Positions 17,823-52,341 of a stretch of 64,000 bases of DNA are shown piece by piece. Both the position numbers and the translations under genes were made by a program. The stretch is from Symbiodinium natans (taxonomy: Eukaryota > Sar > Dinophyceae > Suessiales > Symbiodiniaceae). Numbering within the stretch: the stretch's first letter is position 1; each line of letters opens with the position of its first letter. The notes beneath the pieces were generated by a model. It was not told where the DNA came from. It worked only from the letters and a program-made list of their open reading frames with translations, and did not search any database. The stretch spans positions 62,001 through 126,000 of the forward strand of contig CAJNDS010000066.1 of the NCBI GenBank assembly GCA_905221605.1, written 5' to 3'.

Positions 17823-19034
17823 CAAGTTTGCCAAGAAGGTCATGAAGGCTATGAAAGGCGACGAAGGCCGACGAAGGCGATGAAAGCCAACAAAGGCGCG
17901 CACGGCGCCGAAACACTTTTTTGGAATCTCGAAGAGTAGCTTGTTCTGAAAACAAAGTGTGCCGCGTGGTTGCTCCCTAATACCCTGGGGTTCCCGAGCC
18001 CGCCCGCCAACAACCGGTAGGAGTGCCCTGCAAGTGAGTGCGCATCTGCGTCGCTTGCCGCCCGACCCCCGTAGGCCCTTCCCTTCGGCCCTGCACTAAA
18101 CATTTTATTCCGTGCTCGCTTTCTCAAGACATCTCGGGTAGGGGTGGGGGGCTGCCGGGCGGTTTGGGGCGTGGGCGGGCTTGCGTCGCAGGGGCCTCAG
18201 AGTGTCTTAGGGTTTCTCCTCGGGTATGTTTCGGACTTGAGGTTGGGATCTGCGTGTGCGCACAGGAGGGCCCTGCACTGCTGACCCCCCCGTAACCCCG
18301 CCCGTGCCCGTCCCCTCCTCGCTCCGCCCAGGTCTGGAGTCTTCGGCGTTGGCGCAGCAGGCGTGGGTCGGGACGTTGGAACCCCAGAGTGCGGGATGCC
18401 CTTGCACGTTGCAGTCGTGAGCCTTGGGTCTTTGAAGCTGTGAGCCTGGGATCTCTGAAGCTGCGAGCCTGGAATCTCTGAAGCTGCGAGCCTGGAATCT
18501 CTGTAGCTTTTAGTTCGAAGGGGGAGACCGCAGTATAGACGGTCCATTCGCCCAGGCCTGGACCTCTTCGTGGACGCCCTGCTCCTCAGAGGGTTTTTGC
18601 ACTTCGGACTTGGAGGGTATGGGGCTTTGTTGGTTTGAGCGTGAGCGCATGAGTGCCTTGCCGCTGCCACCCCAACATCCCCGTCAAGATAGAGTGCCCT
18701 GCGGTCCCGAACCCCGCCCGGGAGCCCCGTCGCTTGCAGGTACTCTTCGCGTCGGCTTCTACATCGACTTCCTTTCGCCTGGAACCTGGCCGTCTGCCTC
18801 CGCAACCGCGGTACTGCTGTTTGAGGGCCGTCGAGTTTGAGCATTGCTGAATTACTGCAGCACATTTTGTGCGCAAGCTCGTGGGGCTTCCAGCTGGTAG
18901 GGCCTTCTGATCAGGGGCTTGCTGCTTAGAGGGCTTTCAGCTCACAGGACTTGCAGCTTATAGGGCTTTCAGCTCACAGGGCTCTTAGCTCCGGTGGCTT
19001 GCACTTCTAGGGCTTGCAGGGGGGCTCTGGGGTG
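17823..19034. other. No gene seen; short tandem repeats
   Basis: GC-rich. A ~10-bp GAAGGCGATGAAAGCC-type repeat sits at 17,830-17,905. Three and a half copies of a ~27-bp unit (CTCTGAAGCTGCGAGCCTGG with AAT) lie at 18,430-18,510. A GCTTTCAGCTCACAGGG-type repeat is at 18,915-19,020. Minus ORFs through this stretch (18,197-18,865) show no motif. Confidence 0.5.
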
Positions 19035-19637
19035 ATGGGTGAAGCGCGGAAGCTGGCGGTGCAGCTGGTGCTGAGCCCAGCTCATGGAGATGGCGAGAAG
19101 TGCGGCTTCAGGGTCTTTTCGGGCACTGCGAAGAACTGCCACTTGCAGATGATGCGCATGGTGCACCCGGACAAGTGCGAGGACCCGCGCGCCGTCGAAG
19201 CCGCCCAGGAGTTGCAGCGCTTGGAGTTCATGCAGGGCCGCGATTCCGAAGCCGAGGCGCTGCGAGCGCTGCAAAAGAGCAGCCTGGAGGAGCGGCTGGC
19301 ACAAGCGATGCGGTCCGAGGCTCCTGCAGCCCTCGCGGCCCGCAAGGGCGTCCCGACGGCCAAGGCCGCGCCTGGCCGAACTTTGGATAACTTCATGAAG
19401 AATATGGCGACTATGAGGGCTGCAGCGCCCAGAAAGCCGGCGACGCCCAGCAAGCCGGCGATGCCCAGCAAGCCGGCGATGCCCAGCAAGCCGGCGATGC
19501 AGTCTGAGGCTTGTTTCCGCGGAGGGTCCTCAAACACATCAAACGCATCGAATAGATCAAATCCTGTCAGGACCCAGCTGCAACACCTCCCGGCCCGGAT
19601 GGATCTCCCGAGGTTCGTGCCGCAGTCTCTCGTTTAA
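19035..19637 (+). CDS. J-domain-like protein with a PSKPA repeat tail
   Basis: The ATG at 19,035 gives 200 residues. Residues ~22-65 read KCGFRVFSGTAKNCHLQMMR, then MVHPDKCEDPRAVEAAQELQ, with the HPD tripeptide between two helices as in DnaJ J-domains, where HPD stimulates Hsp70 ATPase. A helical, Glu/Arg-rich segment follows, then about three tandem PSKPAM units (19,440-19,500), then a basic Ser/Asn-rich end. No zinc-finger or C-terminal DnaJ domain is present. It is first in a plus-strand pair with the polymerase-like ORF and is separated from it by a CATGAGT-type array. Whether it belongs to the viral element or the host is not decided by the sequence. Confidence 0.5.
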   Translation: MGEARKLAVQLVLSPAHGDGEKCGFRVFSGTAKNCHLQMMRMVHPDKCEDPRAVEAAQELQRLEFMQGRDSEAEALRALQKSSLEERLAQAMRSEAPAALAARKGVPTAKAAPGRTLDNFMKNMATMRAAAPRKPATPSKPAMPSKPAMPSKPAMQSEACFRGGSSNTSNASNRSNPVRTQLQHLPARMDLPRFVPQSLV

Positions 19638-20150
19638 TTCACGTGGGCTCATGTTGCACTCATGTGGGCTCATGTTGCACTCATGTGGGCTCATGTTGGA
19701 TTCGCGCTTCTATAACAGGCGGCTCACGTGCGCCCGGAAGATGTCCCCGAGGCTCACGCCTCATGTGAGCTCATGTAGGACTCATGTGGGCTCATGTTGC
19801 ACTCATGTGGGCTCATGTTGGATTCGCGCTTCTAACAGGCGGCTCACGCGCGCCCGGAAACGAGGCTCACGCCTCATGTGTGAGCTCATGTTGCACTCAT
19901 GTGGGCTCACGTGACACTCATGTGGGCTCATGTTGCACTCATGTGGGCTCATGTTGCACTCATGTGGGCTCATGTTGCACTCATGTGAGCTCATGTTGCA
20001 CTCATGTGGACGCATGTTGGATGCGCGCTTCTAACAGGCGGCTCACGCGCGCCCGGAAGATGCCCCCGAGGCTCACGCCTCATGTGTGAGCTCATGTTGC
20101 ACTCATGTTGAACTCATGTGGACTCATGTAACACTCATGTGGGCTCATGT
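19636..20150. repeat. ACTCATG/CATGAGT array I
   Basis: Many tandem units of the ACTCATGTGGGCTCATGTTG type with a few ACTCATGTGAGC variants. The array is interrupted by ~100-bp blocks carrying GGATTCGCGCTTCTA, then ACAGGCGGCTCACGCGCGCC and CGAGGCTCACGCC. It lies exactly between the J-domain ORF stop and the polymerase-like ORF. The same short unit occurs at 21,213-21,247, 44,042-44,115, 47,930-48,196 and 52,154-52,341. Confidence 0.9.
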
Positions 20151-20170
20151 CCGGTTCTACCCCCTTGATT

Positions 20171-21326
20171 TGCTCTGTCTGAGGTCACCAAGGGCGGTGG
20201 CAAAGGTCGCGGCAGGGGTCGCGGCAGGGGTCGCGGCAAGGGCCGCGGCGATGCCGCTCCGGAGGAGCGGAGCAGCGTTGTGAGCTTCCACGCGAGTGAC
20301 TTTGTGGACGCGCAGTGGCTTCATGAGCTGGGGAGCATGAGCGCGTGCCACTACATAGATGTGCGCTCCGGGGACTCCCGCGGTGAAGGGTCGGCTCTCC
20401 CTCTCCGGTCCGTGTGTGCCCAGATGCTGGAGAGAGCCTCGTCCGACGGCTCCGTGGAGCGCTGGTACAAGGAGGACAAGCTCCCGCAGATCGTGGGCCT
20501 GCGGGGGCGGGCGTGGAGCGGCATCCCGCAGGAGGAGATGACGGATGTCGAGGAGGCGCAGCTGGCCCGACTGAGGTGCTCGAGGGGCTACGATGCCACG
20601 AGGTCTTGCTTCACCTACCGCAAGGAGGTCAAGGAGCTCCTGCGAGGCGGGTTCGAGCAGGATGCGAACTTCCGGGACTACGACCTGAAGGCCTCCTTCC
20701 CACGAGCCTTCGCCGCGCGGCACCCCGATGCAACCTCCGTCCGGTCTTGGGTGGATGGATCCTTTGACTTGTGCGGGATGTCGCGCGACGTGGCAAAGTC
20801 CTTCATCAACCAGTGCTTCGGCGTGGGGGAGAAGGGCATCGCAGACTGGTGCCGGCAGCATGGGTACGGCGAGCTGCCGATTCCCCTCCAGCGCTACCTT
20901 GCGGACGTCCGGGAGGGTTCGAGGCGAGACGTTGCCAACAACCCCGCCGTGGTGGAGAAGCTGCGTGCGGCGGGGCGCTTCGACCGGGACCTGCAGAACG
21001 GCGTCGTGTACGTGCTCAACACCGCCCACGAGCGCGAGCTGCTGGAGGAGGGCGCGGAGCGAGTCCGGCGCCTGGCGAGGGTGCGCTGCTTCGAGCTGGA
21101 CGGCTTCTTCCTTGAGAGGCTCGATGCTTCGTGGGACGAGGTGGAGGCTGCGCTGGGTCCGCACTTTGCCCACAAGCCGTACCGGCACCGGGCCTCCCTC
21201 CTGAAGGGGCTCATGAGCCCACATGAGTCCCACATCCACATGAGTCCAGAAGGCTCCTATCGTCACGGCGGGGCCACGCGTCCGGGGTTGAAGTCCGGAC
21301 GGCCAAGGGCACAGGCGGGCGGGTGA
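20171..21326 (+). CDS. DNA polymerase-like protein (palm motifs A, B and C recognisable)
   Basis: Open from a TGA near 20,168. No ATG lies before the first domain, so the true start is uncertain (perhaps an upstream exon). The N-terminus is an RG/GK tract (GKGRGRGRGRGRGKGRG). About residues 170-185 read FRDYDLKASFPRAF, matching polymerase motif A (D..SLYP in family B). Next comes RDVAKSFINQCFGVGEKG, motif B-like (K...N..YG). Near the end is VRCFELDGFFLERLD, in the place of the catalytic motif C ('HDG'/'DTD'). This arrangement recalls the transposon/virus polymerases (TV-Pol) of virophages and Polinton-like viruses; that assignment is inference. It converges on the integrase. The last 30 codons run into CATGAGT units. 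Confidence 0.5.
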
Positions 21327-21339
21327 GTCTCGCCTGAGG

Positions 21340-21883
21340 CTCCGCACTTCCACGAGGCACGGGCAAGGCGTGCTTAAGAAGGGTCTCGCTGCCATCCGTG
21401 GCCCGCGCCACCATGGAGTCAACAGAGCTCAGGTCCTTGGCGGCCCCGTACTGGGGCTGGAAGCTCCTCGCCGCATTGGTCGGGGCTCGGAAGGCCCCCG
21501 CCTCCTGCAGTCGTCGCTGCCGGCTCCTCGTCAGGGTGTCGTTGTGCTTGAACTTTTAAATTTTGCGCATTGTCTTGGTACACTCGGAATGTGGTGGCTG
21601 GCTGCTTCTCCACATCTTCAAGGGCTGCGTGCACTGCCTGGTGTGGGCGCTTGTTGTATGCGCTCGTCACCTGCTCCACGTTCTCCGCCCAGCCTCCCCC
21701 CTCCCGGGCCGCCCTGCCCGCCAGGTCCTTCTTGAGCGTTTGTATTGCCCGGTCAATGACCGCCGCATTGCGGTCCTCAGGCCGCTTCTGTCGGTGCACT
21801 GCTGCGTCGGGGAGCGCCTGCTCCAGGCCCTGGAACTCGTTCCCCATATCTGTGGTCACCACATAGTTGCCCTCCCCCTCCAC
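21340..21883 (-). pseudogene. rve integrase, C-terminal half
   Basis: Minus frame from 21,883: YVVTTDMGNEFQGLEQAL carries the second catalytic Asp (TDxGxEF), and NAAVIDRAIQTLKKDL sits where the catalytic Glu helix of the DDE triad lies (usually V-E-R; here I-D-R). SAYNKRPHQAVH matches the conserved yN..pH. After a frameshift near 21,550 the C-terminal part continues (RRLQEAGAFRAPTNAARSFQ, then PQYGAAKDLSSVDSMVA), with the RSF.P.YG pattern of integrase C-terminal domains. The missing N-terminal half lies immediately adjacent on the opposite strand (next entry). In Polintons this enzyme inserts the element and leaves a short target duplication. Confidence 0.8.
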
Positions 21884-21887
21884 CCCG

Positions 21888-22190
21888 CAAGCTCTACCAG
21901 ATCGCCCGGCGGGACCACCCGCAGCGCCGGGACCTCACGGCTGCTTGCGCACGGATGTGGCCCGGTAGGTGCTGGCGCCCAAGCCCCGGAGCCTGGGCAA
22001 GAGTGCGGCCGAGGGTCCCAACGACCGGCTGCAAGCGGACCTGGTGGACTTTAGCCAAAACACTCGGGGGCGGAATCGGTATGGGCTGGTGGTGACCGAC
22101 GTGTTTACGCGGGAGGTGGCCACCAAGGCCCTGCCCGACAAGCGAGCGGAGACCGTGACCCAGGCTGTGCCCCAGCTGCGCCGAACCCTT
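21888..22190 (+). pseudogene. rve integrase, N-terminal half (inverted)
   Basis: On the plus strand: KLYQIARRDHPQRRDLTAAC, a frameshift near 21,965, then LAPKPRSLGKSAAEGPNDR, LQADLVDFSQNTRG (first catalytic Asp in QADLVDF), and YGLVVTDVFTREVATKA up to VPQLRRTL, after which the similarity ends. It breaks just before the point where the C-terminal half (minus strand, from 21,883) begins. Inverting about 21,884-22,190 would place both halves in one direction on the minus strand. The gene was therefore broken by a small local inversion. Confidence 0.75.
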
Positions 22191-25075: not shown

Positions 25076-25633
25076 GTGTGTTGTGTTTGACACAACACCC
25101 CTCACAGGCCCTCTTATGGGCCCAAAACGCTCATATAACCATGCGGTGCCGTGATTCGCCAAGTTTGGCGAATCGTGGCACCGGCCCGAAATTGGCCCAA
25201 AACGGGCCCAAAAAAATCACTTTTGGGGGTGGAATGTTTGGCATACCACCCCTCACAGGCCCTCCTTTTGTGGCAACGAGATCCTTCAGAGTCCTTCGTT
25301 GGTGCGTTTGGCGCACCAACCCCCCACAGGCGCTCCTTCGGGCCCAAAACGCTCATGTAGGCATGCGGTGCCACGATGCGTCAAATTTGACGAAGCGTGG
25401 CACCAGCCTGGAATTGGCCCATTTTTCCGAGAATTCGGGGTTGTTGTGTTTGGCACACCAACCCTCACAGGCCCTCTTTTGGGCCCCAAAATGCATGCTT
25501 CGGGGGTGGTGCGTTTGGCGCACCACCCCTCACAGGCCCTCTTTTGGGCCCCAAAATGCGTGCTTCGGGGGTGGTGTGTTTGGCACACCACCCCTCACAG
25601 GCCCTCCTTCGGGCCCAAAACGCTTATTTGGGC
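25076..25633 (-). repeat. Array of six structured hairpin repeats 3' of the fibre gene
   Basis: Six units, the last three spaced 65 bp apart, each contain a stem of 8-9 bp around the loop TTTGG or TTTGA, followed by CCTCACAGGCCCTC and GGGCCCAAAA. Stem starts are near 25,078, 25,228, 25,298, 25,440, 25,505 and 25,570. The stem bases differ between units but four remain perfectly paired (GTGTTGTG/CACAACAC; GTTGGTGCG/CGCACCAAC; GGTGGTGCG/CGCACCACC; GGTGGTGTG/CACACCACC). A second hairpin family, GGTGCCACGAT-type, lies at 25,145-25,185 and 25,369-25,409. The array starts right after the fibre stop codon, in what would be the 3' UTR of that minus-strand gene. Confidence 0.85.
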
Positions 25634-27244
25634 TTACGAGCGGCCCCGCTTCTTGCCCTTCTTCTCCAGCGCCTGCACGCGGGCCTGGAGCCCCTGGCAG
25701 ACACCCCACAAAACGCAGCACATGCGGTTGTAGTCGAGCGTCACGAGCTCCCTCGTCCACGAGCTTGCCGCACAGCGCCTGGCCCACGGGCCCCGTCTCC
25801 CGCACTTCATTCGCGATGAAGCCCAGTGTGCGCTTCTGGCTCCCCTCGGTCCGCCGGTACCACTTTGGGGCCACGGTGTCGAAGACCTGCTGCAGCTCCT
25901 CCAGCCCCGCGGGCTCCACGCTGTGCTTCAGCTTCTCATCCGAGAGGTTCTGGAAGCCGTAGTTGCAGATCACCTCGCCGTCGTTGGCCCCGCCCGTGTT
26001 GGATTCCACGATGAGGTTGGTGGGCCCGGTCGCCGCCGTGCGCAGGAAGATGGCCTGGTCCTGGGCGTAGAGCTGCACGCCCCCCGCGGAAGAGGCGGAC
26101 CCCGAGCCTGCGTTGCACGCCACCAGGAGCCGCGCATTGCCCGCCGTCGCGAGGTTCAGCACCTCGGCCGTGACGTCCCCGCTGTTGACGGTGGAGACCA
26201 CCTGCAAATCCCCTTGCGCTTGCACCCCTGTGGCTCCAGGTACGCTGGGCTCGAGACGATGCCATTGTCGGCCCGAATCGCACTGGCGGTGTAGAGCACC
26301 GAGTTGAGGTAGGTGCCCTGCGTGCCGCCCGTCAATGTGAGGTAGTCGTCTGTGGGCCTCGCCCGCACCGTGGGCGCCCGCAGCTCCGTGCTGAGCTCCA
26401 CGCTCCCCGAGGTCAGCGTGCCCTGCACATCCAGTGCGCCGGTAACAACGGTGCCCCCGGAGCCGCCGGTGATGGTGAGCTGCGTGTCCTGGACCCGCGT
26501 GGAGATGGCATTGGTCACCAGCCCCGTGGCCGTGCCCGTGGCGTCGTCGATGTAGAGCTCCGTGTCCACTCGCAGCCGCGGGGCCACCGAGTGCACCTCC
26601 GACGTGGCAAAAGTGCAGAGGCTCTGGTCCGCCTGGTCCGTGACGCGCACAGACACGGTGCCCGCCTTCAGGTTGAGGAACTGATTGGTGGTAAGCAGGG
26701 GCTCCACCGTGTCCGCCTGGATGCTGCCGACCGTGGCGATGCCCAGGCTTGGAGTCCGCGAAGATGCTTCCTTTGGTCAGCATGTTGACGCCCGTCTTGA
26801 GGCTGAAGAGCGTGGAGGACAGGTCGGCCACGGCGGCCCCGTTGCTGGCCTCGAACTCGACGCCCAGGCTGCCGCCCCGCAGCGTCAAGAAATCCGCTCC
26901 GTTGGCCCGCACGTCATTGACCAGCAGGGGGTCTGCGGGCGGTGCCCCTGCCAGGGCATAGCGAGCATCGCTCTCGGCTTTGCTGTAGCAGTCGCAATTG
27001 AGACGGAGCGTGGCCCCGTTGCTCAGGATGGGCGTGGCGCTCAGGGGCGCCTGGGGGAGGAGGGCCCTGACCATTCGTGGCGTAAATTGCTCCAGCACCA
27101 GGGTGTAGATGCCCCCACCCTCCACGTTCCCGTTCGTGGGAAAATACCGGGAGTCCAGAGGCGTGAAGTCGCTGCTGGAGAAGTACCTCCCATCACTCTC
27201 GCTCTTGCTGTAACAGTCGCAGGTCAGTTGCACCGTGGCGGAGT
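25634..27244 (-). pseudogene. Viral fibre protein, C-terminal part with an S74-type chaperone domain
   Basis: Minus strand, at least three frames. It begins in the repeated module NSATVQL-TCDCYSKSESDGRY and repeats it as LNCDCYSKAESDARYALAG, which resembles the YSKxESDxRY repeats of phage tail fibres. Between them is VLEQFTPRMVRALLPQAPLS. Beta-rich segments follow (DDYLTLTGGTQGTYLNSVLY; LQVVSTVNSGDVTAEVLNLA). Near the end LSDEKLKHSVEPAGLEELQQ, then VFDTVAPKWYRR and LGFIANEV match the S74 intramolecular chaperone, and LDYNRMCCVLWGVCQGLQAR is the terminal coiled coil. The stop is at 25,634-25,636. In known families this domain trimerises fibres and then cleaves itself off. The upstream part of the gene is beyond the LINE at 37,109. 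Confidence 0.75.
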
Positions 27245-27258
27245 TGCCCAGGATCAGG
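27245..27258. repeat. LINE target-site duplication, left copy
   Basis: TGCCCAGGATCAGG, identical to 37,109-37,122. Both copies lie in the fibre gene, and the flanking bases differ (T/A on one side, A/T on the other). Confidence 0.85.
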
Positions 27259-27354
27259 AAGCCCCCGGCTCAAGTGAATCTTTTTCTTGTCGTGTGTTGC
27301 TTGGGGGGCCACAGTGTCCTCGCTTCTTTCTCGGTAGCTCTGTAGCTGCTTGCC

Positions 27355-28750: not shown

Positions 28751-28751
28751 C

Positions 28752-29369: not shown

Positions 29370-30059
29370 CCAGCATGGGCCGATGCTCCTTACTCCTTGC
29401 TTTCCTGCACCGTGCCAGCTGGAGCCAAGAGAGCGACAGTGGGCTGCCTCACAGGGATTGAGCACCTCCGTGTCAAAACAAGTCAACAGATTGCAGATCA
29501 GTCTCACGACACTTTGCTATACCATGCAACTACACACTCGCCAGTGCGCGCGCAGGAAGATATCAAATCATCAGTCCCGACCTTGGTGGCCGCCGCCATA
29601 CACAGAGACAGTCATTGCGGCTGTACCTCAGTGTGCACCCTTGATTACTCAGGCTGGGGATGTGCGGCCCACCGCGCCCCGGAGCCGGACTCCACGATGG
29701 ATAAGAACAGGCACGCCACGCCTGCTCACATGTGTGCCCAGTTGCCTGCCAGAGATCGCAATTCTCCAAGTTCAGACAGCATACCACCGGACCCTCTGCA
29801 GATTCTACTCAAGCCGGCCCATCCCTGTGATAGCTTCACGCGTGTCAATGGGGCAATCGCCTGCTGCAAAGGCACGTTCAGCGACGAGGCCACCTACGAG
29901 GTTTCGCAGCCCGGCACGGACACCTGCCTGGGAATACCCTACCAAAACCACTGGAATCGGCGACAGAACAGGACACCATGGAAGCCCCGCACACAGACCT
30001 CCTACGGCAAATCATCCAGCTCGAGCAGTACGTGGAGACGAGTGCCGCCTCAGCCACCC
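29370..30059. other. LINE interior; short ORF overlapping the next start codon
   Basis: The longer frames here have poor coding sense. A 29-codon ORF begins with ATG at 29,978 (MEAPHTDLLRQIIQLEQYVE) and its TAA stop lies inside the ATGCCTAAG start of the ORF at 30,060, an overlap suited to termination-reinitiation. Confidence 0.4.
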
Positions 30060-33927: not shown

Positions 33928-34045
33928 ACTTCTCTACAACATGGTTTGAACGCTGTGGGAGTTGGATGGGAGGAGCTTAGGCTGATCCGTTCATGCTGTG
34001 CAAGGCAACTCCGTGCGATTTCGTCCAGCCCAGTCCACATAACAC

Positions 34046-35496: not shown

Positions 35497-35522
35497 TACG
35501 TCTGTTCATCTCTTGATTGAGG

Positions 35523-41396: not shown

Positions 41397-41436
41397 GTTT
41401 TACTCTGTCAGTCGAGGCTCGACACGTCCGCCGAGC

Positions 41437-42639: not shown

Positions 42640-43880
42640 CGGCCTCCGGCTCGCTCGCGCTTCGAAGCGCCTGGAACGACGGGGGCGGTGCCGCGCGCGA
42701 CGGGCGACTCGCTGCCCGAGGACTGCGCCAGTGGAGCGGGGTTCAAGCCCGTGGGGAAGCGCGTGGGCCTCGCGGGACGAGCCTGCACTCGCGGGGGCGG
42801 CTGTGCCCGCGGCTCCGATTCGCCGTCGGTGTCCATGCGGTAAAACTGCGTCCGCGGGCGTTGCTCTCGGAGCTGAAAGTGCTGCTCAGCCCCAAACTCC
42901 TGCATCCCATTCAAGGTCTGGATGTCGGGGGCCGAGCTGGGGCGCGAAGCGTCCGTGTCCGTGCCTCCTCCTCCGCCCCAGCCCAAAAAAAGGTGCTCTG
43001 CCGCCACCATGCCGCCGTGCAGTGCCCATGCGGTTCCCACGAGTGCGGCCGCCCCGCCTGCCACAGCCAAGCCTCCCGCTGCTGCTCCCATGCCCGCAGC
43101 GGTGCCCAGTGCCGCCTCGCCGAACAGCGCAAGCGCGCCCGGGCCCGCTGCGGCCTCTGCAGCACCTGCCGCTTCCGCAGCCCCCGCAGCCATTTCTGCG
43201 GTGGAAGCGAAGCTCTCGGTTGCTTCGGCCTCGGCCACCTGCTCGCTCATGAACTGCTCGATGTCTCGGGCTGCCGTCCTCTCCACCTCCTGGGCCCGCT
43301 GGCCCGCTCGCTCCAGCAGCGGCTCCACTTTGCTGGGCCGGCCGATGATTTGCGGAGGGGCCACCTCGTCAGGCGGTGGTGCTAGGCCCTCGGGCGTGCG
43401 CGGGATGCGCCTGCGCGCAGCGTTGTAGAGGTCTTGCCCGTGCCCCGCCATGGCGGAGGCGGAGCCCGCCAGCCCCGCCGCAGCTCCCGCCGCGGCCTGG
43501 GCCTGCTGCAGCCGGCCCAGGAAGCCCGGCGCCCGCGGCGGGTTCAGGCCGTCGTTGCGCAGAGCCTGGCCAGGGTCCACGGCCCCGAAATCCGGTTCGC
43601 TGTCCATGTCGAAGGCTCCCTTCTCGGGAAGGGCACCCCATCGTAGCCTTCGTTGGCTTTTTTCGTAGGCTGCTGCAGGGTCCACGGTCGTGTGGGGCAA
43701 CGGGGCGGGCTCGGGCTCGCTGCTCTGGGGATAGTCATCTAGCCAGAAATGCGAGGAAGTCAGGATGGATGCGTTGCGGTTCGGGAGGTTGATGGGCAAG
43801 GGCTCGCCCTCGGCGATGTAGCCCAGGACCTGTGAGTAGGACGGTCGCACGCGGAAGCCGTGCGCGCGTCGCTCCTCCAT
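42640..43880 (-). CDS. Alanine-rich virion-like protein fused in frame to the capsid protein
   Basis: ATG at 43,880 on the minus strand (MEERRAHGFRVRPSYSQVLG). About 413 codons with no stop before the capsid ATG. Residues ~125-150 and ~225-310 are Ala/Gly-rich and amphipathic or hydrophobic (ALALFGEAALGTAAGMGAAA; GGLAVAGGAAALVGTAWALH), suggesting a membrane-active or core segment. The C-terminal linker is rich in Arg, Pro and Gln. Unrecognised. Its position just upstream of the capsid gene and the absence of a stop mean it is either an N-terminal extension of the capsid protein or a separate minor virion protein whose stop was lost. Confidence 0.5.
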
Positions 43881-44124
43881 GTCTTTACTTGACACTCGTT
43901 GTCGACATCCCGATGGGCGCCCCGGAGGGCACCCCGGAGCGGCCGCCGCATTGGCCGGTGAAACGGTGTTCAATGTAGGTGGGACCTACATTGAAATGAT
44001 TCACGATTAAAACACGCTCTACCTTAGAAGCTGACGTGCAGCGGGCGGGTGGACTCATGTGGGACTCATGTGGACTCATGTGGGACTCATATCGACTCAT
44101 GTGGGACTCATGTTGGGGGCATCT
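43881..44124. repeat. CATGAGT array II (core 44,042-44,115) and spacer
   Basis: Between two minus-strand viral genes. The core is five to seven ACTCATGTGG-type units. The inner spacer has an inverted repeat AATGTAGGTGGGACCTACATT at about 43,973-43,993 with a 9-bp arm (AATGTAGGT/ACCTACATT). Confidence 0.85.
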
Positions 44125-44457
44125 TTACATCAAGCCGCCGTAAACCCCAGAGTCGGACGTGTTGCGCCCGGCGACCACGTCCCGCGCAACTCGGCGCACG
44201 CCCGCCCGCTCGGCGGGGGCCCACCTCAACTGGGGGATCCTCCTGTTGACGGCGTCGACTGCACGCCCCACATCATCCGCATAGGCCTCGCCCTCCTGGC
44301 GCTGCCGCCGGTTGGCCAACCATTCATTGAACGCTCTTGCATCGATCAATTGTTGCTGCCGCTTGTAGAGCAGCGGCGTCAGGTTGTAGGAAGGGTACTG
44401 CTTGTGAAAGGCCCGCAGCATCGCGGCCTCGTTGCGCCACTCCGGATAGCGCATCAT
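44125..44457 (-). CDS. Small viral ORF, 110 aa, unknown
   Basis: ATG at 44,457 (MMRYPEWRNEAAMLRAFHKQ), only 2 bp after the stop of the preceding gene, which argues for real coding and tight packing. A helical, Arg/Gln-rich protein (LLYKRQQQLIDARAFNEWLA), ending NTSDSGVYGGLM. No domain recognised. By position it may be a minor virion protein. Confidence 0.5.
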   Translation of the reverse strand: MMRYPEWRNEAAMLRAFHKQYPSYNLTPLLYKRQQQLIDARAFNEWLANRRQRQEGEAYADDVGRAVDAVNRRIPQLRWAPAERAGVRRVARDVVAGRNTSDSGVYGGLM

Positions 44458-44459
44458 CT

Positions 44460-44863
44460 TTAGATATCCATGGAATTGCGGAGAAGCAACTCGTGGAAGC
44501 GGTCGGCGCGGGAGAGCTGCCGGGCCTGGCGGGCCTCCGAGGGCGTCATGCCCGAAGGCCGCTCAGGGGGCACGGGCTGTTGTGGGGGCTCTTGCTGGGG
44601 CTCCGGCTGCGACGGCTCAACTGGCTGAGGAGGCTTCGGAATCTCCGCCACGGCCACAGTCGGGGGCGGCTTCGGCTTGTTCTTCGAGCCTGGGGGTCGC
44701 CCTCGCCTTTTGGGCTGCGGCGCTTCTTGAGGAGCCTCGGTCGGCGGCTCGGGGGCTGCCGCTGCAGGGGGTTCGGCCACCACAGGCTTCGCCGGCTGGG
44801 CGGGCTCGGGGGCCACGGGAGGCTCGGCGGCCACAGGAGCGGGTGCATCTTCCTCAGCGATTT
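44460..44863 (-). CDS. Proline-rich viral ORF (start unclear)
   Basis: Minus frame EEDAPAPVAAEPPVAPEPAQ followed by PKPVVAEPPAAAAPEPPTEA, an AT-hook-like basic patch (PKRRGRPPGSKNKPKPPP) and a helical end (QARQLSRADRFHELLLRNSM). No ATG lies in this frame before the first codons; the nearest ATG (at about 44,848) is in the next frame, so a one-base indel near the start is likely. The RGRP core suggests DNA binding, for instance a core protein. Ends at TAA 44,460. Confidence 0.45.
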
Positions 44864-44880: not shown

Positions 44881-45855
44881 TCATCGTTCGGTGTCCAAGA
44901 AGATCAGGAAGGACACGCTGGTGCCTCTGGTGTCCACGACATTGCCCTGGTAGTCGGTGAGCTTGAAGCGCAAATGCCTCAGCGTGATGGGCCCGTGTAG
45001 GTTCACCCAGTGCCCCTCCGAGGTCTCGGTCTCCATGACATGGCCCACGCCCTTGGACACCACGATCTTGCACAAGATGTCGTGCCCCAGCGGGCCGACC
45101 GTGGTTTCCCCGTTGGCCAGCGAAGGGCAGCGCAAGTACAGCTCTGAGAACGGATTCATAGTGACGAAGACGAAGCGCTGCACGGAGCCCGTGAGGTAGC
45201 TGGGGCCCAATAGATGATTGATGCTCAGGGGCTTGCTGGGCGAGGCGCCCGGCGGGTAAGGGCCCGTGCCCGGAAAGCGCTGCCGGAGCTCGGCGTCGTT
45301 CAGGATCAGGCGCACAACGTCGTAGGTGACGTCCAGCTCATTTGTTTCGGCTGTGTACGAGCACGCCGCGAAATTGCTGGAGATCCACGCCGCTAGCCGT
45401 GGGCCCGTGTATGCGCCCACGGGGAGCTCGGCGTAGTGCAGGGTGCCGGCCACCTCGTCCTCCCAGTACAGGAAGGTCCCGCGGTCCGTGCTCAGAAAAG
45501 CGTCGGCGATGCGCACCTTGTAGACGGCCAGCTTGGCCCCGCTCTGGATGTGCACCGACTCGCCGATGTCGAACGAGAAGCTGCTGTCTGTGCCCTGCGT
45601 GCGCAGGCGCGAGTCCACGTAGATGGAGGTCATGAGCTTTCTTTTGCGCCTGAAAATGCGCGTGGGGCGGGCGGAGAAGTCGCTGGCGGTGGACTCGTCG
45701 GAGACCTGCCGGGACCTGTCCGGCGGGGGCCAGTTCCGGCTCGGGTCGTAGATGCCCTGCGTGCTGCTGCAGCACCTAATGTTGCTGCACTCGCTCTCGC
45801 ACAGGGGCCCTCCCCCCAGCAGCTTGCCCACTATCTGGCTGAGGATCGTCCCCAT
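44881..45855 (-). CDS. Penton/minor capsid-like protein
   Basis: An intact ORF of 324 codons from the ATG at 45,855. The N-terminus GTILSQ fits an N-myristoylation pattern (G2, S6) and is followed by a Cys cluster (CESECSNIRCCSS). The body opens with TSIYVDSRLRTQGTDSSFSF and closes with LRHLRFKLTDYQGNVVDTRG then TSVSFLIFLDTE. Both the 'R..GT.s.F' opening and the 'L.F.LTD..GN.VDL.G' ending resemble the single-jelly-roll penton protein of Polintons and adenovirus-like elements. One of the few undamaged genes of the segment. It lies between the ATPase and the proline-rich gene. Confidence 0.6.
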   Translation of the reverse strand: MGTILSQIVGKLLGGGPLCESECSNIRCCSSTQGIYDPSRNWPPPDRSRQVSDESTASDFSARPTRIFRRKRKLMTSIYVDSRLRTQGTDSSFSFDIGESVHIQSGAKLAVYKVRIADAFLSTDRGTFLYWEDEVAGTLHYAELPVGAYTGPRLAAWISSNFAACSYTAETNELDVTYDVVRLILNDAELRQRFPGTGPYPPGASPSKPLSINHLLGPSYLTGSVQRFVFVTMNPFSELYLRCPSLANGETTVGPLGHDILCKIVVSKGVGHVMETETSEGHWVNLHGPITLRHLRFKLTDYQGNVVDTRGTSVSFLIFLDTER

Positions 45856-46610
45856 TTAGCACAAACTTACGGTCGAAGCGCGCCCAAAACATGTCTTCCT
45901 TGGGCGCGCGGAGGTTCACCGTCCAAAACGAATAGGGCTCCCGCGTGGCCTCCTCGTACATGGCGTAGAGGGTCTCCTTCGGGAGCATGGCAGAGAGCTC
46001 CTCCACCAGGGCGTCCAACTCTCGAGCTGATTCCGCAGCCGGAAGACGCAGTAGAACATCACGTTGACCCGCACGGCCGAGCTCATGAGCCGAAGCTTTT
46101 GGGTGGACACCCAGGTATTTATGCAGAAATGTCTACCCCTGATGAACAGTGTGTCCAGGACTCCGTCGCCCGTCTTGCGGTGCACCGCAGGATTGTCGGC
46201 ATGATCATCCAAAACTATCAATACTTGGTATAGTTTTTTGAGGCCCAGCTCCTTGCTCTTCTGGGTGATGCGCTTCTGGTCCGCGATGATCTTCCGCAGC
46301 GCACCCTCGTCCCAGTCCTCCCACCAGCACTGCTCCCGGTCGGTGTTGACCCCCAGCTCGTCCCGGATGTAATCCTTGACAGGCTGCCAGGCGGAATCGA
46401 CCTCTACCGAGGGCGAAAAAACAAAGATGCGCTCGAAGCAGCCCCTGTATTGCTCCAAAATCATGCTCACCAGGAGCACCGTCTTCCCGGAAGCCGACGG
46501 GGCACACAGGATCCCGTTGGCGGGGGGCTTGCAGACCACGGGGTCAGGGGGCTGCTTGACGGAGTACTCAGGCGTCTTGAAGAGACGCACCTTGTGTTGC
46601 GCTCGCGGCG
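45856..46610 (-). pseudogene. FtsK/HerA-type genome-packaging ATPase (one frameshift)
   Basis: Minus strand: KTPEYSVKQPPDPVVCKPPA, then NGILCAPSASGKTVLLVSMI (Walker A, xxxSGKT), CFERIFVFSPSVEVDSAW, YQVLIVLDDHADNP (Walker B), LFIRGRHFCINTWVSTQKLR (sensor region). After a frameshift near 46,015 come MDALVEELSAMLPKETLYAM and SFWTVNLRAPKEDMFWARFD. This matches the A32-like packaging ATPase shared by Polintons, virophages and NCLDV. Start not resolved; the frame overlaps the methyltransferase 3' end. A TAA sits immediately before the penton ATG and may be the original stop. Confidence 0.75.
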
Positions 46611-47193
46611 ATCTCGTCGCACAGCGCAGGTGGGATGGAGTACAACTGGTCCCGCGAGTTGCTGCCCTGCCGCCCCTTGGTGGGCCCTCGCTGCGCGGCC
46701 TCGGGGTGCCGAGTTCCTTGGAAGGCCTCGCAGCGGTCGCCCTTGCAGCAGGGGCCCTGGGAGGGCGTCCAAGGCAGGTTGTGCCACACCGCCGTGGGCT
46801 TCTTGTACCGGAAGCCGTACTTGTGACCCGGTCCATGTGCAGCCCCTGCGTGTAGGGGCGGGTTTTGAGGCGCCCGGTGCTCGGGTTCTCGATGGCCCAC
46901 CACTTGGGCTTGAGGTAGTCGATGATCTCGAGCGTCTTGAGCACCAGGGCGTCCCTGACCGGCAGGTTGCAGGGGCGCTTCTTGAGGGCGATGCTGAACT
47001 CGGTGCAGCAGGGCGAGGCCCAGACCATGTCGAAGTGCCCGGGCTCGAAGGCCTTGTAGTCCCACTGCAGGATGTCGGAGCAGATGGTTGGATTGGATTT
47101 TGGGTTGCTGTCAAGACTCGTTACCTGCCAGCCACGGGCCTCGAAGGCACGGCCGACCGACCCCGTGCCACTGAACAGCTCCAGGAGTCTCAT
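46568..47193 (-). pseudogene. Viral cytosine-C5 DNA methyltransferase (one frameshift)
   Basis: ATG at 47,193. MRLLELFSGTGSVGRAFEAR is motif I (SAM binding). FDMVWASPCCTEFS is motif IV with the catalytic Cys (PC). KPKWWAIENPSTGRLKT is motif VI. The sense then moves to the frame ending at 46,568: KYGFRYKKPTAVWHNLPW, GPCCKGDRC and LYSIPPALCDEI, the conserved end of short (~210 aa) virus/phage methyltransferases that lack a large target-recognition domain. All catalytic motifs are kept; only one indel near 46,820 breaks it. It may have protected or masked viral DNA in a heavily methylated host (inference). Confidence 0.8.
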
Positions 47194-47337: not shown

Positions 47338-47928
47338 ATGAGCGACAAGCCAAGCGCGGCGATCAAGCTCGGTGACCTCCTGGCCAACCCGAAAGGCGGC
47401 AAGTTCTTCCCCGTCGCCGCAGAGGACGGCGGGCCGGCCGTGTGGCAGACGTCCGACTGGCCGTGTGGCAGACGTGCGACTGGATCCGCATCCTGTGGCA
47501 CCCCAGCGCCTACAACGGCGAGGACGCCCGGCGCCTCCCCCTGTGCCTGGAGCCCAGCGAGGCGGCGAGAGCGGAGCTGGCCGGATTCGAGAAGGCCCTC
47601 GTGGCGCAGCTGGCCAGCCGAACCGTGGCGGACCCGAAGATCTTCGGCCGCTTGCTCACCACCCAGGATATGGAGAGCCGCTTCGTCTCCTGCCTCAAGA
47701 AGTCCACGCGAGGGAACCCCTTCATCAAGCTCAAGCTCTGTTTGGACCGTGCGCCTGTGGGATCCCGAGCAGCAGCCTCTGCAGGAGCCGGGGTGCCTGA
47801 CCAATCGGCAGTGCAAGCTGCGCGCCGAGCTGAAGCAGGTCTGGCTGATGAGCGGCCAGTGCGGTCTGCTGATTGAAGTGACCGACCTCATGCTCAAGGA
47901 CGAGGAGCCCCAGAGGTGCCCCTTCTGA
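47338..47928 (+). pseudogene. First plus-arm viral gene, unknown (two frameshifts, one from a 23-bp duplication)
   Basis: ATG at 47,338 (MSDKPSAAIKLGDLLANPKG). After a 23-bp tandem duplication (47,438-47,460 and 47,461-47,483, one mismatch) the sense moves to the next frame (CDWIRILWHPSAYNGEDARR; KIFGRLLTTQDMESRFVSCL). Near 47,745 it returns to the first frame (VRLWDPEQQPLQEPGCLTNR; GQCGLLIEVTDLMLKDEEPQ) and stops at TGA 47,926-47,928. The pattern of a short, beta-rich protein with 'l.lWD..g..l' and a Cys, placed just before the polymerase, would suit a single-strand DNA-binding protein, but this is a guess. Confidence 0.5.
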
Positions 47929-47929
47929 C

Positions 47930-48196
47930 AGGAGTCAACATGAGTCCCACATGAGTCCACATGAGTGCCACATGAGTCCACATGAGTGCCACATGAGTCC
48001 ACATGAGTGCTACATGAGTCAACATGAGTCCCACATGAGCCCACATGAGTGCTACATGAGTCAGCATGAGTGCTACATGAGTCAACATGAGTCCCACATG
48101 AGCCCACATGAGTCCACATGAGTGCTACATGAGTCAACATGAGTCCCACATGAGCCCACATGAGTGCTACATGAGCCCACATGAGTCCTACATGAG
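47930..48196. repeat. CATGAGT array III
   Basis: Over twenty units of CATGAGTCCA, CATGAGTGCTA, CATGAGTCAA and CATGAGCCCA between the first plus-arm gene and the polymerase. It reads open in several frames (for example MSPHESHMSPHECYMS), but this is a by-product of a repeat without stops. Confidence 0.95.
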
Positions 48197-48263: not shown

Positions 48264-50785
48264 ATGTCGTGGATGCAACAACGCGAAGCGATACGACGTG
48301 CAGCCGACGCTGGGGCCAGACCACGGATCTCAGCGCAAGGCTCGCAGCTACTGCCTCTGAGGGACCACCGCCTGCAGTCCGTGCTCCTCTCGCGCCCGAA
48401 TGGCCAGCTCACCCGCGCGGGCCAGTTCTTCTTCGGCCTCACCGGCCGGCGGCCCCCGAACCGCCAGTTCGACGAGGCCCAGCCGCTCATCCGAGACGGT
48501 GCCTCCGACTACATCCTCATGAGAGGGGGGACGCGGAAGCTCGTGCGCACCCTGCAGCCCAACGGCCAGTACCATGTCACCAAACTAGGAAAAGCCTTTT
48601 TCAAGGATAAGTACACGGAGTGGCTGGCTCATGTGCCCGTGATCATCCGGGGCCGCCGGAGGAACGGCAACCCCTACGAGCGCCATGACTACCTGCCCGT
48701 TATCACGCTGGAGCTGGGCCTGTCCCGGCAGAACGACGCTTGGAGTGAGGCGCAAATCGCGCGCAACGTGAAGGAGGCGGTGCTCCGGCAGCTGGGGCAG
48801 CCTGGAGAGGGCGAACCCATTTACATGATCAGTGGGGAAGTGTACATCCTCCACCCCACCAACGAGTGGGCCTACAGGTCCTCCTCCATGCAAGTTATTG
48901 ACAATCGTGTAGACACGCAGATCCGCCTCCGTCAGCCCTTGGGGGCCTTACGGGAGGTCAGCTACCAGCTCTTCGCCGGAGACCAGATCCTCGCTAGTGC
49001 CTCCCCGGCAGCTGGCGGAGCTGCTGAAGCTTCCGCTGCAAGAGGTCCTGGAAGACTTTAACTCCATCTGTCCTGGGAACTGGCAGCAGCGGGGAGTGTC
49101 CCCCGCAGAGATCCGCACCTTCTGCGTGTGGCGCAACGCACCCATGTTCTACGCGGACTGCCGGGGCCGGCTGCTGGACAGCTTCCAGCCCACGGAGAAG
49201 GAGGAGCGGGCCGTCGCTTTCACCAGCTGGAACGGCCACGCCTTCTTCTACCGGAGTGCTCGGGCCGTGGCCAGCTGCGACGAGTCGGAGCAGCGGCCGC
49301 GCTACCGCCAGCTCAGGCGGGACACCCCAGTGCCCGAGTTCAAGGACTGGCAGCCCTGGGACGGAGAGATCGCCTCCGGCTACTTTTGGACCGAAGACAT
49401 TCGCGGGGTCCGAGCGGACCTGCTGGCCCAGGGGCACCACCCGAAGGTCTCCATGCGGGGCTTGTGCGAGTGGTCGTCATTGCGCCTGCGAGTGCGCGGC
49501 GGAGCGGACTGCGTGATTCGGGAGCTCTGCAAGGATGCGGCGGTGCTGCAGCAGTGGACCGAGCGCCTGGGCGTGCCCTATCGCGGGCAGCGCCTGGCCG
49601 GGGCCAGCTTGGAGGTCTTCTTGCACCTGCTGCAGGGCAAGCGCGAGGACACGCGGAGCCGCCGGGAGGAGTTGCTGGCCCAACAGCAGGGCATGTGCAA
49701 GCTGTGCGGCGCGCCTATCGGTCTGGGGACCTTCGAGATAGATCACGTCATCCCGGTTTCCCAGTCCTTCGCCGGACAGCAGCTGGAGCTGCAGGCCCTG
49801 TGCTTGGAGTGCCATCGGACCAAGACCAGCCTGGAGGGCAACCACAGCACCACCTTGGAGAGCCGGTTCTGCCGGTTTGTGTACCAGAACTACGCGGCCT
49901 CGCCTCGGCTGCCCCCCTTAGTCTTCCAGCTGCAGAAGTGGGACGACTCCCGCCCCTGCCAGGGCATCGACGTGCGTCGCTGCCGCAAGAATGGGTTGGC
50001 AAATGCTCGCTTCCCGCTGCCCGTCTTTTCCCTGCTGGACTGCATCGTCCCCACGGAGGAGGGCAAGCTCGCAGATTTGACCTGGGTCGAACTGCCGTGC
50101 GACCGCCGCAAGGGCGTGCTGGACCGCCTGCCCTATGTGGGGAGAGGGTGGTACCCCAAGCCTGCGTGCGCCTACATGCTGAGGCGGGGCTGGCCAAGTG
50201 GAGCCACTTCAAGTGGAGCCTGGACGCCGCCGCGCACGTCGACCAACACTGCCTGGAGCAGGTCCTGGAGCGCATGGAGCAGAACTGGCCGGAGGGGGAA
50301 GAGCACTACGCCAAGCTGGCCATCAACAGCCTCGTGGGGCTTTTTGCTCGAAATCTAGAATTGGTTTATTCTATGAAGACTTCAAACCATGAGGTAGATG
50401 GGGAGGGCTGCAGCTGGCGCCAGACCTTCACAGATTCTGCTGGGAAAAGGCACTGGGATCACATCTTTGTCACCGAGCTGCTCTCCAACAGCAGCTACCG
50501 ACCAATTCATGACTACATCATGGGAGCCGAGTACGTGGCGGTGGCCCGGATTCGGCAGGCCTTGGCGGAGGTGCCGAAGCGCTACCTGAAGAGCATCAAG
50601 ACCGATTGCCTGGTGATGCAGGACGTCCCGAAGAAGCACCGGCCCGCCGTGGAGCGGCTGCTGCAGATGTCGCACCGGGACGGTACCCCCGTCTACAGGT
50701 ACGAGGAGGTGGCCGGTTTGAAGGGCCAGTACCGCGAGCCCAGCATGGAAGCGGAGCCCATCCGAGCGAAGCCGTCGTGGCGCCG
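48264..50785 (+). pseudogene. Family B (protein-primed type) DNA polymerase with HNH insertion
   Basis: ATG at 48,264 (MSWMQQREAIRRAADAGARP), after the repeat array. The first ~245 residues (LMRGGTRKLVRTLQPNGQYH, APVITLEL-like LPVITLELGLSRQNDAWSEA) are an N-terminal domain of the type fused to dinoflagellate Polinton polymerases. A frameshift near 48,990 leads to PPRQLAELLKLPLQEVLEDF and SWNGHAFFYRSARAVASCD. An HNH module follows (49,690-49,850). GIDVRRCRKNGLANARFPLP is in the place of motif A. A frameshift near 50,190 leads to HYAKLAINSLVGLFARNLEL (motif B, NSLxG) and RYLKSIKTDCLVMQD (motif C, one of the two usual Asp kept). The frame then runs directly into a helicase. It would copy viral DNA from a protein primer. 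Confidence 0.7.
49690..49860 (+). other. HNH endonuclease-like module inside the polymerase
   Basis: GMCKLCGAPIGLGTFEIDHV, then IPVSQSFAGQQLELQALCLE and CHRTKTSLEGNH: two CxxC pairs, the DHVIPVS core and the terminal N/H region of HNH nucleases are intact. It lies in frame in the polymerase, between the N-terminal part and the palm. Confidence 0.75.
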
Positions 50786-51801
50786 AGTGGAGGACCCCGT
50801 GGAGCACTGCCTGGACGGCGAGAGCTTGCTGCTGACGGGCTTTCCGGGAACGGGCAAGACCCACCTGGCCAAGAAGATCGTCGAAGCCCTTCGGGAGCAC
50901 GGGGACACGGTGCACATCATCACCAAAACGCACGCGGCCGTGCAAAATGTCGGGCTGGGGGCTCAGACGGCGGACCACTGGGTGCGGCGGAACGTGCGCG
51001 ACGGGCACTGCAGCGCCACGTGGCTGGTCATCGAAGAGCTGACGCAGCTCGATACTCCCCTGTGGGCTGACATAGCTTGTTTGAGCCTGAACAAGAAGAT
51101 TCGCTTTCTGCTGTTGGGAGACTTTCGGCAGCTGCCCGCCGTGCTCGATAGCTTCGCGGGCGCGGAGGTCTGCAAGGAGCTGAAGGACAGCCAGCTGCTG
51201 CACGACCTGGCGGGCGGCTGGTGCCACGAGCTCTCGGAGCGCTGGCGCTTCGACGAGCGCATCTTCGAGTTCCTGACCTGGTTGCGAGTCGACGAGCCCG
51301 AGCAGGTCCCGCTGCTTGAGGCAGTGCGGGAGGCCCGGCGGCGCTTCCCGAGGCGGGGGGAGCCCGACGTGAGCCTGGTCATCTCCCATGCAAAGCGGCT
51401 CCAGATCAACGAGCGAGAGAACCGCAGGCTGGCGCCCGCCGATGCCCTGCTGGTGCAGTACGAGGCTCGGGGCGCGGTGCCGACGAATGCGCCGCAGACC
51501 ATGAGGGTCTGGCCAGGGCTGCGGCTCATCGGAGCTGGCGGGAAGGTGCAGAAGGAACCTTCCTGACCGTGGAGGCAGTGGAGGGCGACGTCGTGCGCCT
51601 GGAGAGCGGCCAATGCTTCGCGGGCCCGGAGCTGCTGAACACACCAGGCTTTGCAGCGCCATCACCTACGCTTCGGTTCAAGGGCTGACCCTGAGAGGGA
51701 GAGTGTGGCTCTATGATGTAGAGAGTCCACACTTCACACTCAAGCACCTCTACATAGGCTGCTCTCGGGCCACCAATTCGGAGCTATTGAGCGTCCTGTG
51801 A
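50786..51801 (+). pseudogene. Pif1-like SF1 helicase fused to the polymerase
   Basis: Continuous with the polymerase frame. LLLTGFPGTGKTHLAKKIVE (Walker A), HIITKTHAAVQNVGLGAQTA (motif Ia), WLVIEELTQLDTPLW (motif II; E-E where family members usually have D-E), LLLGDFRQLPAVLDSF (motif III), VSLVISHAKRLQINERENRR. The main frame stops at 51,566. Two shifts later the 2B part resumes: LTVEAVEGDVVRLESGQCF, then AITYASVQGLTLRGRVWLYD and LKHLYIGCSRATN (motifs V-VI), with the stop at 51,801. It would unwind viral DNA ahead of the polymerase. Polymerase-helicase fusion in one frame is unusual. Confidence 0.75.
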
Positions 51802-51811
51802 TTCTTCCAGA

Positions 51812-51841
51812 GCAAGGTCGGATTTCCGACCTTGCAAAAAA
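51812..51841 (+). terminator. Perfect 11-bp hairpin followed by A7, just after the helicase stop
   Basis: GCAAGGTCGGA-TT-TCCGACCTTGC starts 11 bp after the stop at 51,801 and is followed by AAAAAAA. Giant viruses and virophages form mRNA 3' ends at such palindromes (established for mimivirus), so this is a candidate viral transcript end signal. Confidence 0.6.
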
Positions 51842-52153
51842 ACGGGCAGCATTTCCCCAGGGCGGAGACCCAGGGGTGTGGGGTTTGAGGTGTTCGGAGC
51901 CGCCCCATTCCCTGGACGGCTCCCAGGCTCCCCAGCCTGCGCGAGCTTCACAGGAGGCGATGGGTTACGCATGGCCCCATCTGAACCCTAAGCGTCGGGT
52001 ACCTCCTCCACTCGCTGGACCGCCGGGCCGCGACCCAGAGCCTCCCCCCGCAAGCGAGGTTCCTCGGCCCTGGGCTGCAGCTCAGCGTGCCCCACACGGA
52101 CAGCAACGGACGCCGTATTGAAACTATTTGCAAAGGTGGCTCTCTATGGGGGG
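51842..52153. other. No gene seen
   Basis: GC-rich spacer between the helicase 3' hairpin and the fourth CATGAGT array. It encodes only a proline-rich frame without motif. Confidence 0.5.
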
Positions 52154-52341
52154 GTACTCATGTAGACTCATGTAACACTCATGTGGACTCATGTGGGACT
52201 CATGTGGACTCATGTGGGACTCATGTGGACTCATGTGGACTCATGTGGACTCATGTGTGGGACTCATGTGGACTCATGTGGGACTCATGTGGGACTCATG
52301 TGGACTCATGTGGGACTCATGTGGACTCATGTGGGACTCAT
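52154..52341. repeat. CATGAGT array IV
   Basis: About sixteen ACTCATGTGG/GACTCATGTG units ending in ACTCATTTCG, immediately next to the long-TIR element copy B. It marks the right edge of recognisable viral sequence. Confidence 0.9.

What the first reader, a model, noticed from the sequence alone, without database searches (positions are those of the whole stretch)
19000..52341. A decayed Polinton-type endogenous virus with an unusual gene set in a dinoflagellate genome
The segment combines an rve integrase, a family B polymerase, an FtsK/HerA packaging ATPase, capsid- and penton-like genes (the Polinton core) with genes not standard in Polintons: a C5 cytosine methyltransferase, an HNH module and Pif1-like helicase fused to the polymerase, fibre proteins with a phage S74 chaperone, possibly a second polymerase and a J-domain protein. 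Two arms diverge from a 29-bp spacer. If confirmed, this is a distinct lineage of dinoflagellate viruses.
Basis: partly seen in the sequence, partly recalled or inferred. Interest (0 to 1): 0.92.

Follow-up and report, generated by a model that had tools for sequence, protein, structure and literature searches.

The report
Decayed Polinton-like virus in Symbiodinium genome
This stretch of a dinoflagellate chromosome is the broken remains of a small DNA virus that inserted itself, one of dozens of related copies in the genome; the virus group is already known, but comparing copies suggests that capsid genes and replication genes have been swapped between elements.

Summary
The observation largely holds. 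The window is dinoflagellate nuclear DNA (most likely Symbiodinium natans) carrying a dead Polinton-like virus (PLV). Confirmed: a double jelly-roll capsid protein (pTM 0.84; Foldseek 1.4e-21 to a PBCV-1 capsid chain), an A32-type packaging ATPase, an rve integrase, a C5 methylase, and an HNH plus SF1-helicase fusion with intact relatives (P0123: 1189 aa, 94% identical over the searched part). The S74 fibre is sub-threshold, the penton model failed, and the J-domain and second polymerase are weak. Inserts, including a LINE-type element, fill about 22.2-25.6 and 27.3-40.1 kb. The gene order recurs, wholly or in part, in 10 fetched copies; genome-wide, 33 of 36 helicase loci lie within 12 kb of the penton-like gene. 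The gene set is less unusual than claimed: dinoflagellate PLVs, HNH-helicase fusions in Symbiodinium PLVs and S74 fibres are in print. New here: a conserved C5 methylase and a conserved gene beside the helicase, and crossed histories: C347 and C1852 share capsid proteins (87-88%) but not the helicase (62%), while C347 and C1142 share the helicase (91%) but not the capsid (52-67%). This indicates arm exchange between elements.

The parts
19011..19634 (+). ORF with weak J-domain similarity (left arm)
   Evidence: DnaJ E 0.14, below cut-off; next matches in the genome C602:688265-688594, 47% over 111 residues, about 4.2 kb from an integrase piece, and a marginal one at C1914
19639..20150 (.). 21-bp tandem array with CATGAG on the minus strand
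20169..21323 (+). PolX: candidate second polymerase, perhaps the PolA-type domain of a PolA-SF3 helicase protein (motifs read by eye and recall); its last 37 codons overlap the integrase on the other strand
   Evidence: no other copy of residues 1-316 in the fetched stretches; the only other genome match is residues 317-385 at C602, largely integrase antisense; 4 other relatives among 8000 scored candidates; the 624-aa relative P0243 has a sub-threshold D5_N hit, E 0.098
21214..22165 (-). rve integrase, broken: several frames, and the stretch 21883-22165 inverted relative to other copies
25533..27269 (-). fibre protein, C-terminal part with S74-like domain (residues 443-493)
   Evidence: PF13884 E 0.018, below cut-off; PHROG tail fibre 7.8e-5; conserved in copies
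27260..36300 (+). LINE-type retroelement inserted in the fibre gene (not viral)
   Evidence: EEP endonuclease PF03372 4.5e-10 at 30590-32347; fibre continuous in C347 and C1852; reverse transcriptase only by eye (FADD in the frame 33388-33924)
40595..41399 (-). fibre protein, N-terminal pieces
   Evidence: conserved beside the MCP in copies
41553..42641 (-). [quoted passage not shown]
   Evidence: 185 homologues, 120 listed; alignment; structure of relative P0001 and Foldseek
42642..43880 (-). conserved gene directly upstream of the MCP, in frame with it here, a 473-aa frame of its own in C1852; no family match
44049..44113 (.). short copy of the 21-bp array between gene blocks
44128..44861 (-). 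two conserved frames of unknown function (44128-44562 and 44463-44861)
   Evidence: matched in 10 of 10 fetched copies
44884..45855 (-). penton-like (minor capsid candidate) gene, intact frame of 324 aa
   Evidence: position and conservation; fold not obtained
45919..46590 (-). A32/FtsK-type packaging ATPase
   Evidence: PF04665; separate from the methylase in other copies
46770..47193 (-). short C5 cytosine methyltransferase, in one frame with the ATPase in this copy
   Evidence: PF00145, PHROG 363 3.9e-18; separate 225- and 260-aa frames in C347 and C1852
47254..47925 (+). g47: gene of about 185-195 aa in intact copies, most ending in CPF; possible ssDNA-binding protein (recall only)
   Evidence: matched in 10 of 10 fetched copies; frames; no family match above cut-off
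47928..48196 (.). 21-bp array, inverted relative to 52153-52341; the pair flanks the helicase gene
48264..51798 (+). HNH (49696-49830) - pPolB-like palm - SF1 helicase (50805-51179) protein, in four pieces here
52153..52341 (.). 21-bp array at the right edge of the element

Best explanation
A dead, endogenised Polinton-like virus, about 17 kb of remaining viral DNA, split by retroelement insertion and local rearrangement, in a Symbiodinium (most likely S. natans) genome that holds dozens of related copies. Inferred working of its live ancestors: an rve integrase inserted the genome; an HNH-pPolB(palm)-SF1-helicase protein (Tlr1-like) replicated it, probably by protein priming; the double jelly-roll capsid, penton-like protein and A32-type ATPase built and filled the particle; an S74-type fibre bound the host; a phage-like C5 methyltransferase modified DNA. 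Shown: identities of MCP, ATPase, integrase, methylase, HNH and helicase; recurrent gene order; decay. Inferred: replication mode, penton, fibre and methylation roles, and exchange of capsid and replication arms between elements.
For: MCP fold; domain hits. Order integrase-fibre-MCP-upMCP-two small genes-penton-ATPase-methylase-g47-helicase, wholly or in part, in 10 fetched copies: penton, ATPase, methylase, g47, upMCP and both small genes in 10 of 10, helicase 9, fibre 9, MCP 8, integrase 6. Helicase within 12 kb of penton in 38 of 43 rows (chance ~0.09), i.e. 33 of 36 merged loci; penton near MCP 43 of 61. Integrase within 15 kb of MCP or penton 37 of 49 (chance ~0.25). Four contig lengths shared exactly by MCP and helicase hits, jitter mean 0.05; sources unnamed and may include this genome. 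Intact fusion relatives. Copy C347 bounded by inverted tandem arrays ~20.4 kb apart. Host: 759.4 Mb against 761.6 Mb published for S. natans (PMC8045281, passages); contig C50 and the contig of an S. natans protein are both 244972 long.
Against: No TIR or target-site duplication found for the window copy; the arrays at 19.6 and 52.2 kb are in the same orientation. No PolB family in the rows shown (25 of 55 families). S74 below cut-off. Penton fold untested.
Confidence: 0.92

Rival explanations
1. Canonical Polinton/Maverick with a full pPolB (exonuclease plus polymerase) whose polymerase gene is merely decayed.
For: rve integrase, ATPase and DJR capsid are the Polinton core.
Against: Intact relatives encode an HNH-palm-SF1 helicase protein of about 1190 aa with KTD in motif C and no polymerase or exonuclease family among the rows shown, the Tlr1-like arrangement described in PMC11071308.
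Confidence: 0.08
2. The left block (J-domain ORF, PolX) belongs to a second, different element that landed beside the virus.
For: Neither gene was found in the 10 copies or the left flanks read for C347 and C1852; PolX residues 1-316 have no other match in the genome.
Against: C602 has a J-domain-like frame about 4.2 kb from an integrase piece, in the same orientation as here, and perhaps the last 30 residues of PolX; the same 21-bp array type lies in both blocks.
Confidence: 0.35
3. Fragment of a giant virus (Nucleocytoviricota) insertion rather than a PLV.
For: The best PDB matches of the MCP are PBCV-1 and iridovirus capsids; the ATPase hits Pox_A32.
Against: PRD1 also matches; integrase, gene set and a repeated unit of about 15-20 kb fit PLVs.
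Confidence: 0.03
4. Helicase-gene orientation is a reversible switch by recombination between the inverted arrays that flank it.
For: Arrays 47928-48196 and 52153-52341 are inverted repeats around the gene; the gene lies in both orientations relative to penton, 16 penton places same and 17 opposite.
Against: On a tree of 14 copies orientation needs as few as one change (1-2 in bootstrap trees, the split itself weakly supported) and follows helicase clades; no CATGAG array in the stretches of 10 other copies.
Confidence: 0.07

Closest known systems
Dinoflagellate 'Dino group' PLVs/Polintons (Bellas 2023, PMC10120064; Symbiodinium kawagutii example in Haro 2025, PMC12721341)
   Same: Host group, integrated MCP-bearing elements, high copy number
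   Different: Sequences not compared here; the text seen names DNA methyltransferases in a figure legend but describes no C5 methylase, g47 or arm exchange for this group
Symbiodinium and cryptophyte PLVs with HNH fused N-terminally to SF1 helicase (PMC12220804)
   Same: HNH-helicase fusion, rve integrase in some, S74 fibres
   Different: Sequences not compared; 'cytosine' does not occur in its main text
Tlr1-like helicase elements (PMC11071308; Tetrahymena Tlr1)
   Same: pPolB palm fused to C-terminal SF1 helicase, first Asp of motif C lost
   Different: HNH lies N-terminal to the palm here; that paper places homing endonucleases at the C-terminus
OmPLV of Oxyrrhis marina (PMC12721341)
   Same: Dinoflagellate endogenous PLV with SF1 helicase joined to pPolB
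   Different: OmPLV: helicase N-terminal, full exonuclease, Y-recombinase, N6 methylase, low GC. Here: helicase C-terminal, rve, C5 methylase, high GC

Membership tests
[quoted passage not shown]
   pLDDT 84.2, pTM 0.84; Foldseek PDB 1.4e-21; the model is of relative P0001, 88-89% identical to the window's protein
Polinton-like viruses (Preplasmiviricota) | A32/FtsK-type packaging ATPase | tested here: met
   PF04665 22.8 and 23.0 bits, cut-off 22.8
Polinton-like viruses (Preplasmiviricota) | Single jelly-roll minor capsid (penton) | tested here: inconclusive
   pLDDT 37
Polinton-like viruses (Preplasmiviricota) | Terminal inverted repeats | tested here: inconclusive
   None for the window or at the ends of C1852, C50 and C343; inverted terminal arrays in C347
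Maverick/Polinton proper | rve integrase | tested here: met
   PF00665 32.8 bits in C347, cut-off 32.6; 26.3 in C194, below it
Maverick/Polinton proper | Full pPolB with exonuclease | tested here: not met
   No PolB family among the rows shown, HNH and SF1 helicase instead; by family search only, no structure
Tlr1-like helicase (pPolB-S1H) | SF1 helicase C-terminal to a pPolB palm | tested here: inconclusive
   AAA_30 in 21 of 21 members; palm only by motifs K694/N698/G702 and KTD 789-791
Dino group (Bellas 2023) | MCP falls in the Dino cluster | not testable with these tools
   Reference sequences not at hand

The most novel reading that the evidence does not exclude
These dinoflagellate PLVs are built from separately travelling arms. 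One capsid-fibre arm is paired with at least three replication arms (g47 plus HNH-Pol-helicase) of only about 62-63% identity, in either orientation, with the exchange point near the divergent junction beside the methylase. A rare variant, seen here, adds a J-domain ORF and a second, perhaps PolA-SF3-type replicase, so that single elements may carry two unrelated replication systems; this last part is the weaker one.
Probability: 0.42. Interest if true: 0.55.

Novelty: new member of a known kind. Interest (0 to 1): 0.4.

Why it matters
Dinoflagellates are key marine and coral-symbiont protists with few known DNA viruses. Many copies in one genome, with recurrent gene order and crossed gene histories, make it testable how PLVs exchange replication modules, and whether a virus-borne C5 methylase matters in a lineage whose retrotransposons also carry such enzymes (PMC5890265, listing and start of abstract only).

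Tried and rejected
Invertible switch: the inverted arrays around the helicase gene suggested a flip, but orientation follows helicase clades with one to two changes, and the array was not found in 10 other copies.

ATPase-methylase fusion: rejected; separate genes in other copies.

C602 as a second copy of the whole left block: mended on checking. Its 69-residue PolX match is largely antisense of the integrase, and PolX residues 1-316 are not there; only the J-domain-like frame remains. I therefore raised the rival 'second element' from 0.30 to 0.35 and lowered the novel case from 0.45 to 0.42.

Free viral relatives: five IMG/VR scans, none found. Phage tblastn of the methylase-ATPase frame gave 12 records, all matching the methylase part. 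PDB sequence searches found no MCP relative (two weak unrelated hits; none).

Clean 15.4-kb boundaries from C1852: partly rejected, as the left flank continues in C50, C194 and C343.

Penton structure: single-sequence model useless, a poor use of the second structure job; the palm was therefore not modelled.

The rest were mostly further pieces of the same places and short fragments; for the integrase also weaker separate places. Seven of the 43 helicase rows are second pieces, leaving 36 loci. In one search, 119 and 118 contig lengths of 120 and 120 listed hits (185 and 147 in all). Near-identical places (C343/C864, C1065/C1110/C1806, C910/C981/C1008) may be assembly duplicates, so places are not independent. 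The window's own copy is counted.
Full report
What the window is. The window is C66:62001-126000 of a 759.4-Mb assembly in 2543 contigs. GC-rich blocks at about 19-22, 25.6-27.3 and 40.5-52.3 kb hold the viral genes. Between them lie a retroelement with an EEP endonuclease and other inserts; the 5' part of the integrase and bits of the fibre gene are inverted or scattered relative to other copies. The copy is dead: integrase, fibre, MCP end, methylase and helicase are broken; the penton-like frame is intact.

Gene identities. The MCP-like piece has 185 homologues at E <= 0.001 (120 listed), the best 88% identical, many about 409 aa long; named sources include S. microadriaticum, S. necroappetens and S. 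pilosum. A model of P0001 with 30 relatives gives pLDDT 84.2 and pTM 0.84 and matches PBCV-1, iridovirus and PRD1 capsids and viral MCPs in BFVD. ATPase, C5 methylase, HNH and SF1 helicase reach Pfam cut-offs; the rve integrase does in copy C347, not in C194. S74 is below cut-off with a PHROG tail-fibre hit. The penton-like model failed. The J-domain is weak. PolX has motifs that I read, from recall, as PolA-type; its longest relative has a sub-threshold D5_N hit.

The helicase protein. P0123, 1189 aa, 94% identical over the searched part and standing for 134 sequences, is intact and is not from this genome, whose best matches to it are below 100%. Only the 8000 candidates sharing most words were scored. 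Of 21 aligned members, 21 match AAA_30 and 19 match HNH. Motif C reads KTD, as described for Tlr1-like helicases, where the first Asp of DTD is changed (PMC11071308, passages). This genome has matches in uninterrupted open frames of 1183-1286 aa (e.g. C2050, C1894, C1852, C347).

Found together. Of 10 fetched copies, penton, ATPase, methylase, g47, upMCP and the two small genes match in 10, helicase in 9, fibre in 9, MCP in 8, integrase in 6. In C428 no helicase, fibre, MCP or integrase lay in the stretch read; in C1968 the fibre pieces are inverted and the MCP lies beyond the stretch. Genome-wide, helicase lies within 12 kb of penton in 38 of 43 rows, 33 of 36 merged loci; the exceptions are C1867, C504 and one of two on C2307. 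Penton lies near MCP at 43 of 61 places, and integrase within 15 kb of either at 37 of 49. Chance expectations of 0.09 and 0.25 assume random placement. Four contig lengths are shared exactly by MCP and helicase hits, but those sources are unnamed and may include this genome.

Arms with different histories. Protein identities from single best segments: C347 against C1852: MCP 88, penton 87, ATPase 98, methylase 77, integrase piece 73, helicase 62, g47 41. C347 against C1142: MCP 52, penton 67, ATPase 86, methylase 72, helicase 91, g47 77. The window against C1852: MCP 86, penton 90, ATPase 98, methylase 89, helicase 63; against C1968: penton 99, helicase 98. Window g47 values are depressed by frame loss. 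A tree of 14 helicase pieces gives well-supported separate clades for window/C1968, C347/C1142/C1755/C2541 and the C1852 group; how these join is poorly supported. Exchange of the replication arm explains the crossing pattern better than rate differences. The methylase, intermediate, leaves the exact exchange point open. No formal recombination test was done.

Left arm. PolX residues 1-316 were found nowhere else in the fetched stretches, and the only other genome match, residues 317-385 at C602, is largely integrase antisense. The J-domain-like frame recurs at C602, about 4.2 kb from an integrase piece. So this block is rare, and its belonging to the virus rests on neighbourhood and the shared 21-bp arrays.

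Ends. C347 is bounded by inverted arrays of an 11-bp unit about 20.4 kb apart; C1968 has a 75-bp unit at two places. The window's arrays at 19.6 and 52.2 kb are in direct orientation, and no TIR was found.

Literature. PMC12721341: parts 1-4 of 7 read (abstract, introduction, methods, results, part of the discussion). PMC10120064, PMC11071213, PMC12220804, PMC11071308 and PMC8045281: passages only. PMC5890265: listing and abstract start only. The lineage and most of the 'unusual' genes are in print. I saw no report of a C5 methylase in such elements in the search (3 papers listed, none opened) or in the passages above; that is not exhaustive.

Noticed in passing
G000, e.g. C520:47555-48361, C1848:314973-315776, C1904:105022-105825: A second PLV-like group: 40 penton-like places at 27-32% identity in stop-free frames of 277-334 aa; 8 of 15 distant MCP-like places (frames 469-494 aa) lie within 12 kb of one, all 8 on the opposite strand; 0 of 40 within 30 kb of an HNH-helicase place. 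It may be younger than the window's group.
   Followed up: partly
window 10050-16480: Separate retroelement with long frames and a reverse transcriptase (RVT_1 7.6e-6, below cut-off); the 13265-14509 frame has a stretch that resembles, to the eye, a methyltransferase motif I.
   Followed up: no
window 5950-6568 and 52393-53047: 88.9% direct repeat on both sides of the viral region, plus a 164-bp inverted pair at 4816-4977/53131-53291; part of the downstream repeat also follows copy C1968.
   Followed up: partly
window 37963-38380 and 39668-40096: Arrays of a 12-bp unit TTAAGCCCCCCT beside the retroelement region.
   Followed up: no
integrases of C347, C194, C50, C343: The third acidic residue of the rve triad appears to be Asp (AVVDR) rather than Glu, judged by eye.
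   Followed up: no
window 47254-47925 (g47) and copies: Conserved protein of about 185-195 aa beside the helicase, mostly ending in CPF, reminiscent of phage ssDNA-binding proteins by recall; no family match above cut-off.
   Followed up: partly
P0245 (S. microadriaticum relative of PolX): Its C-terminus reads through a repeat like the window's 21-bp array, judged by eye, so array and PolX may travel together in another species.
   Followed up: no
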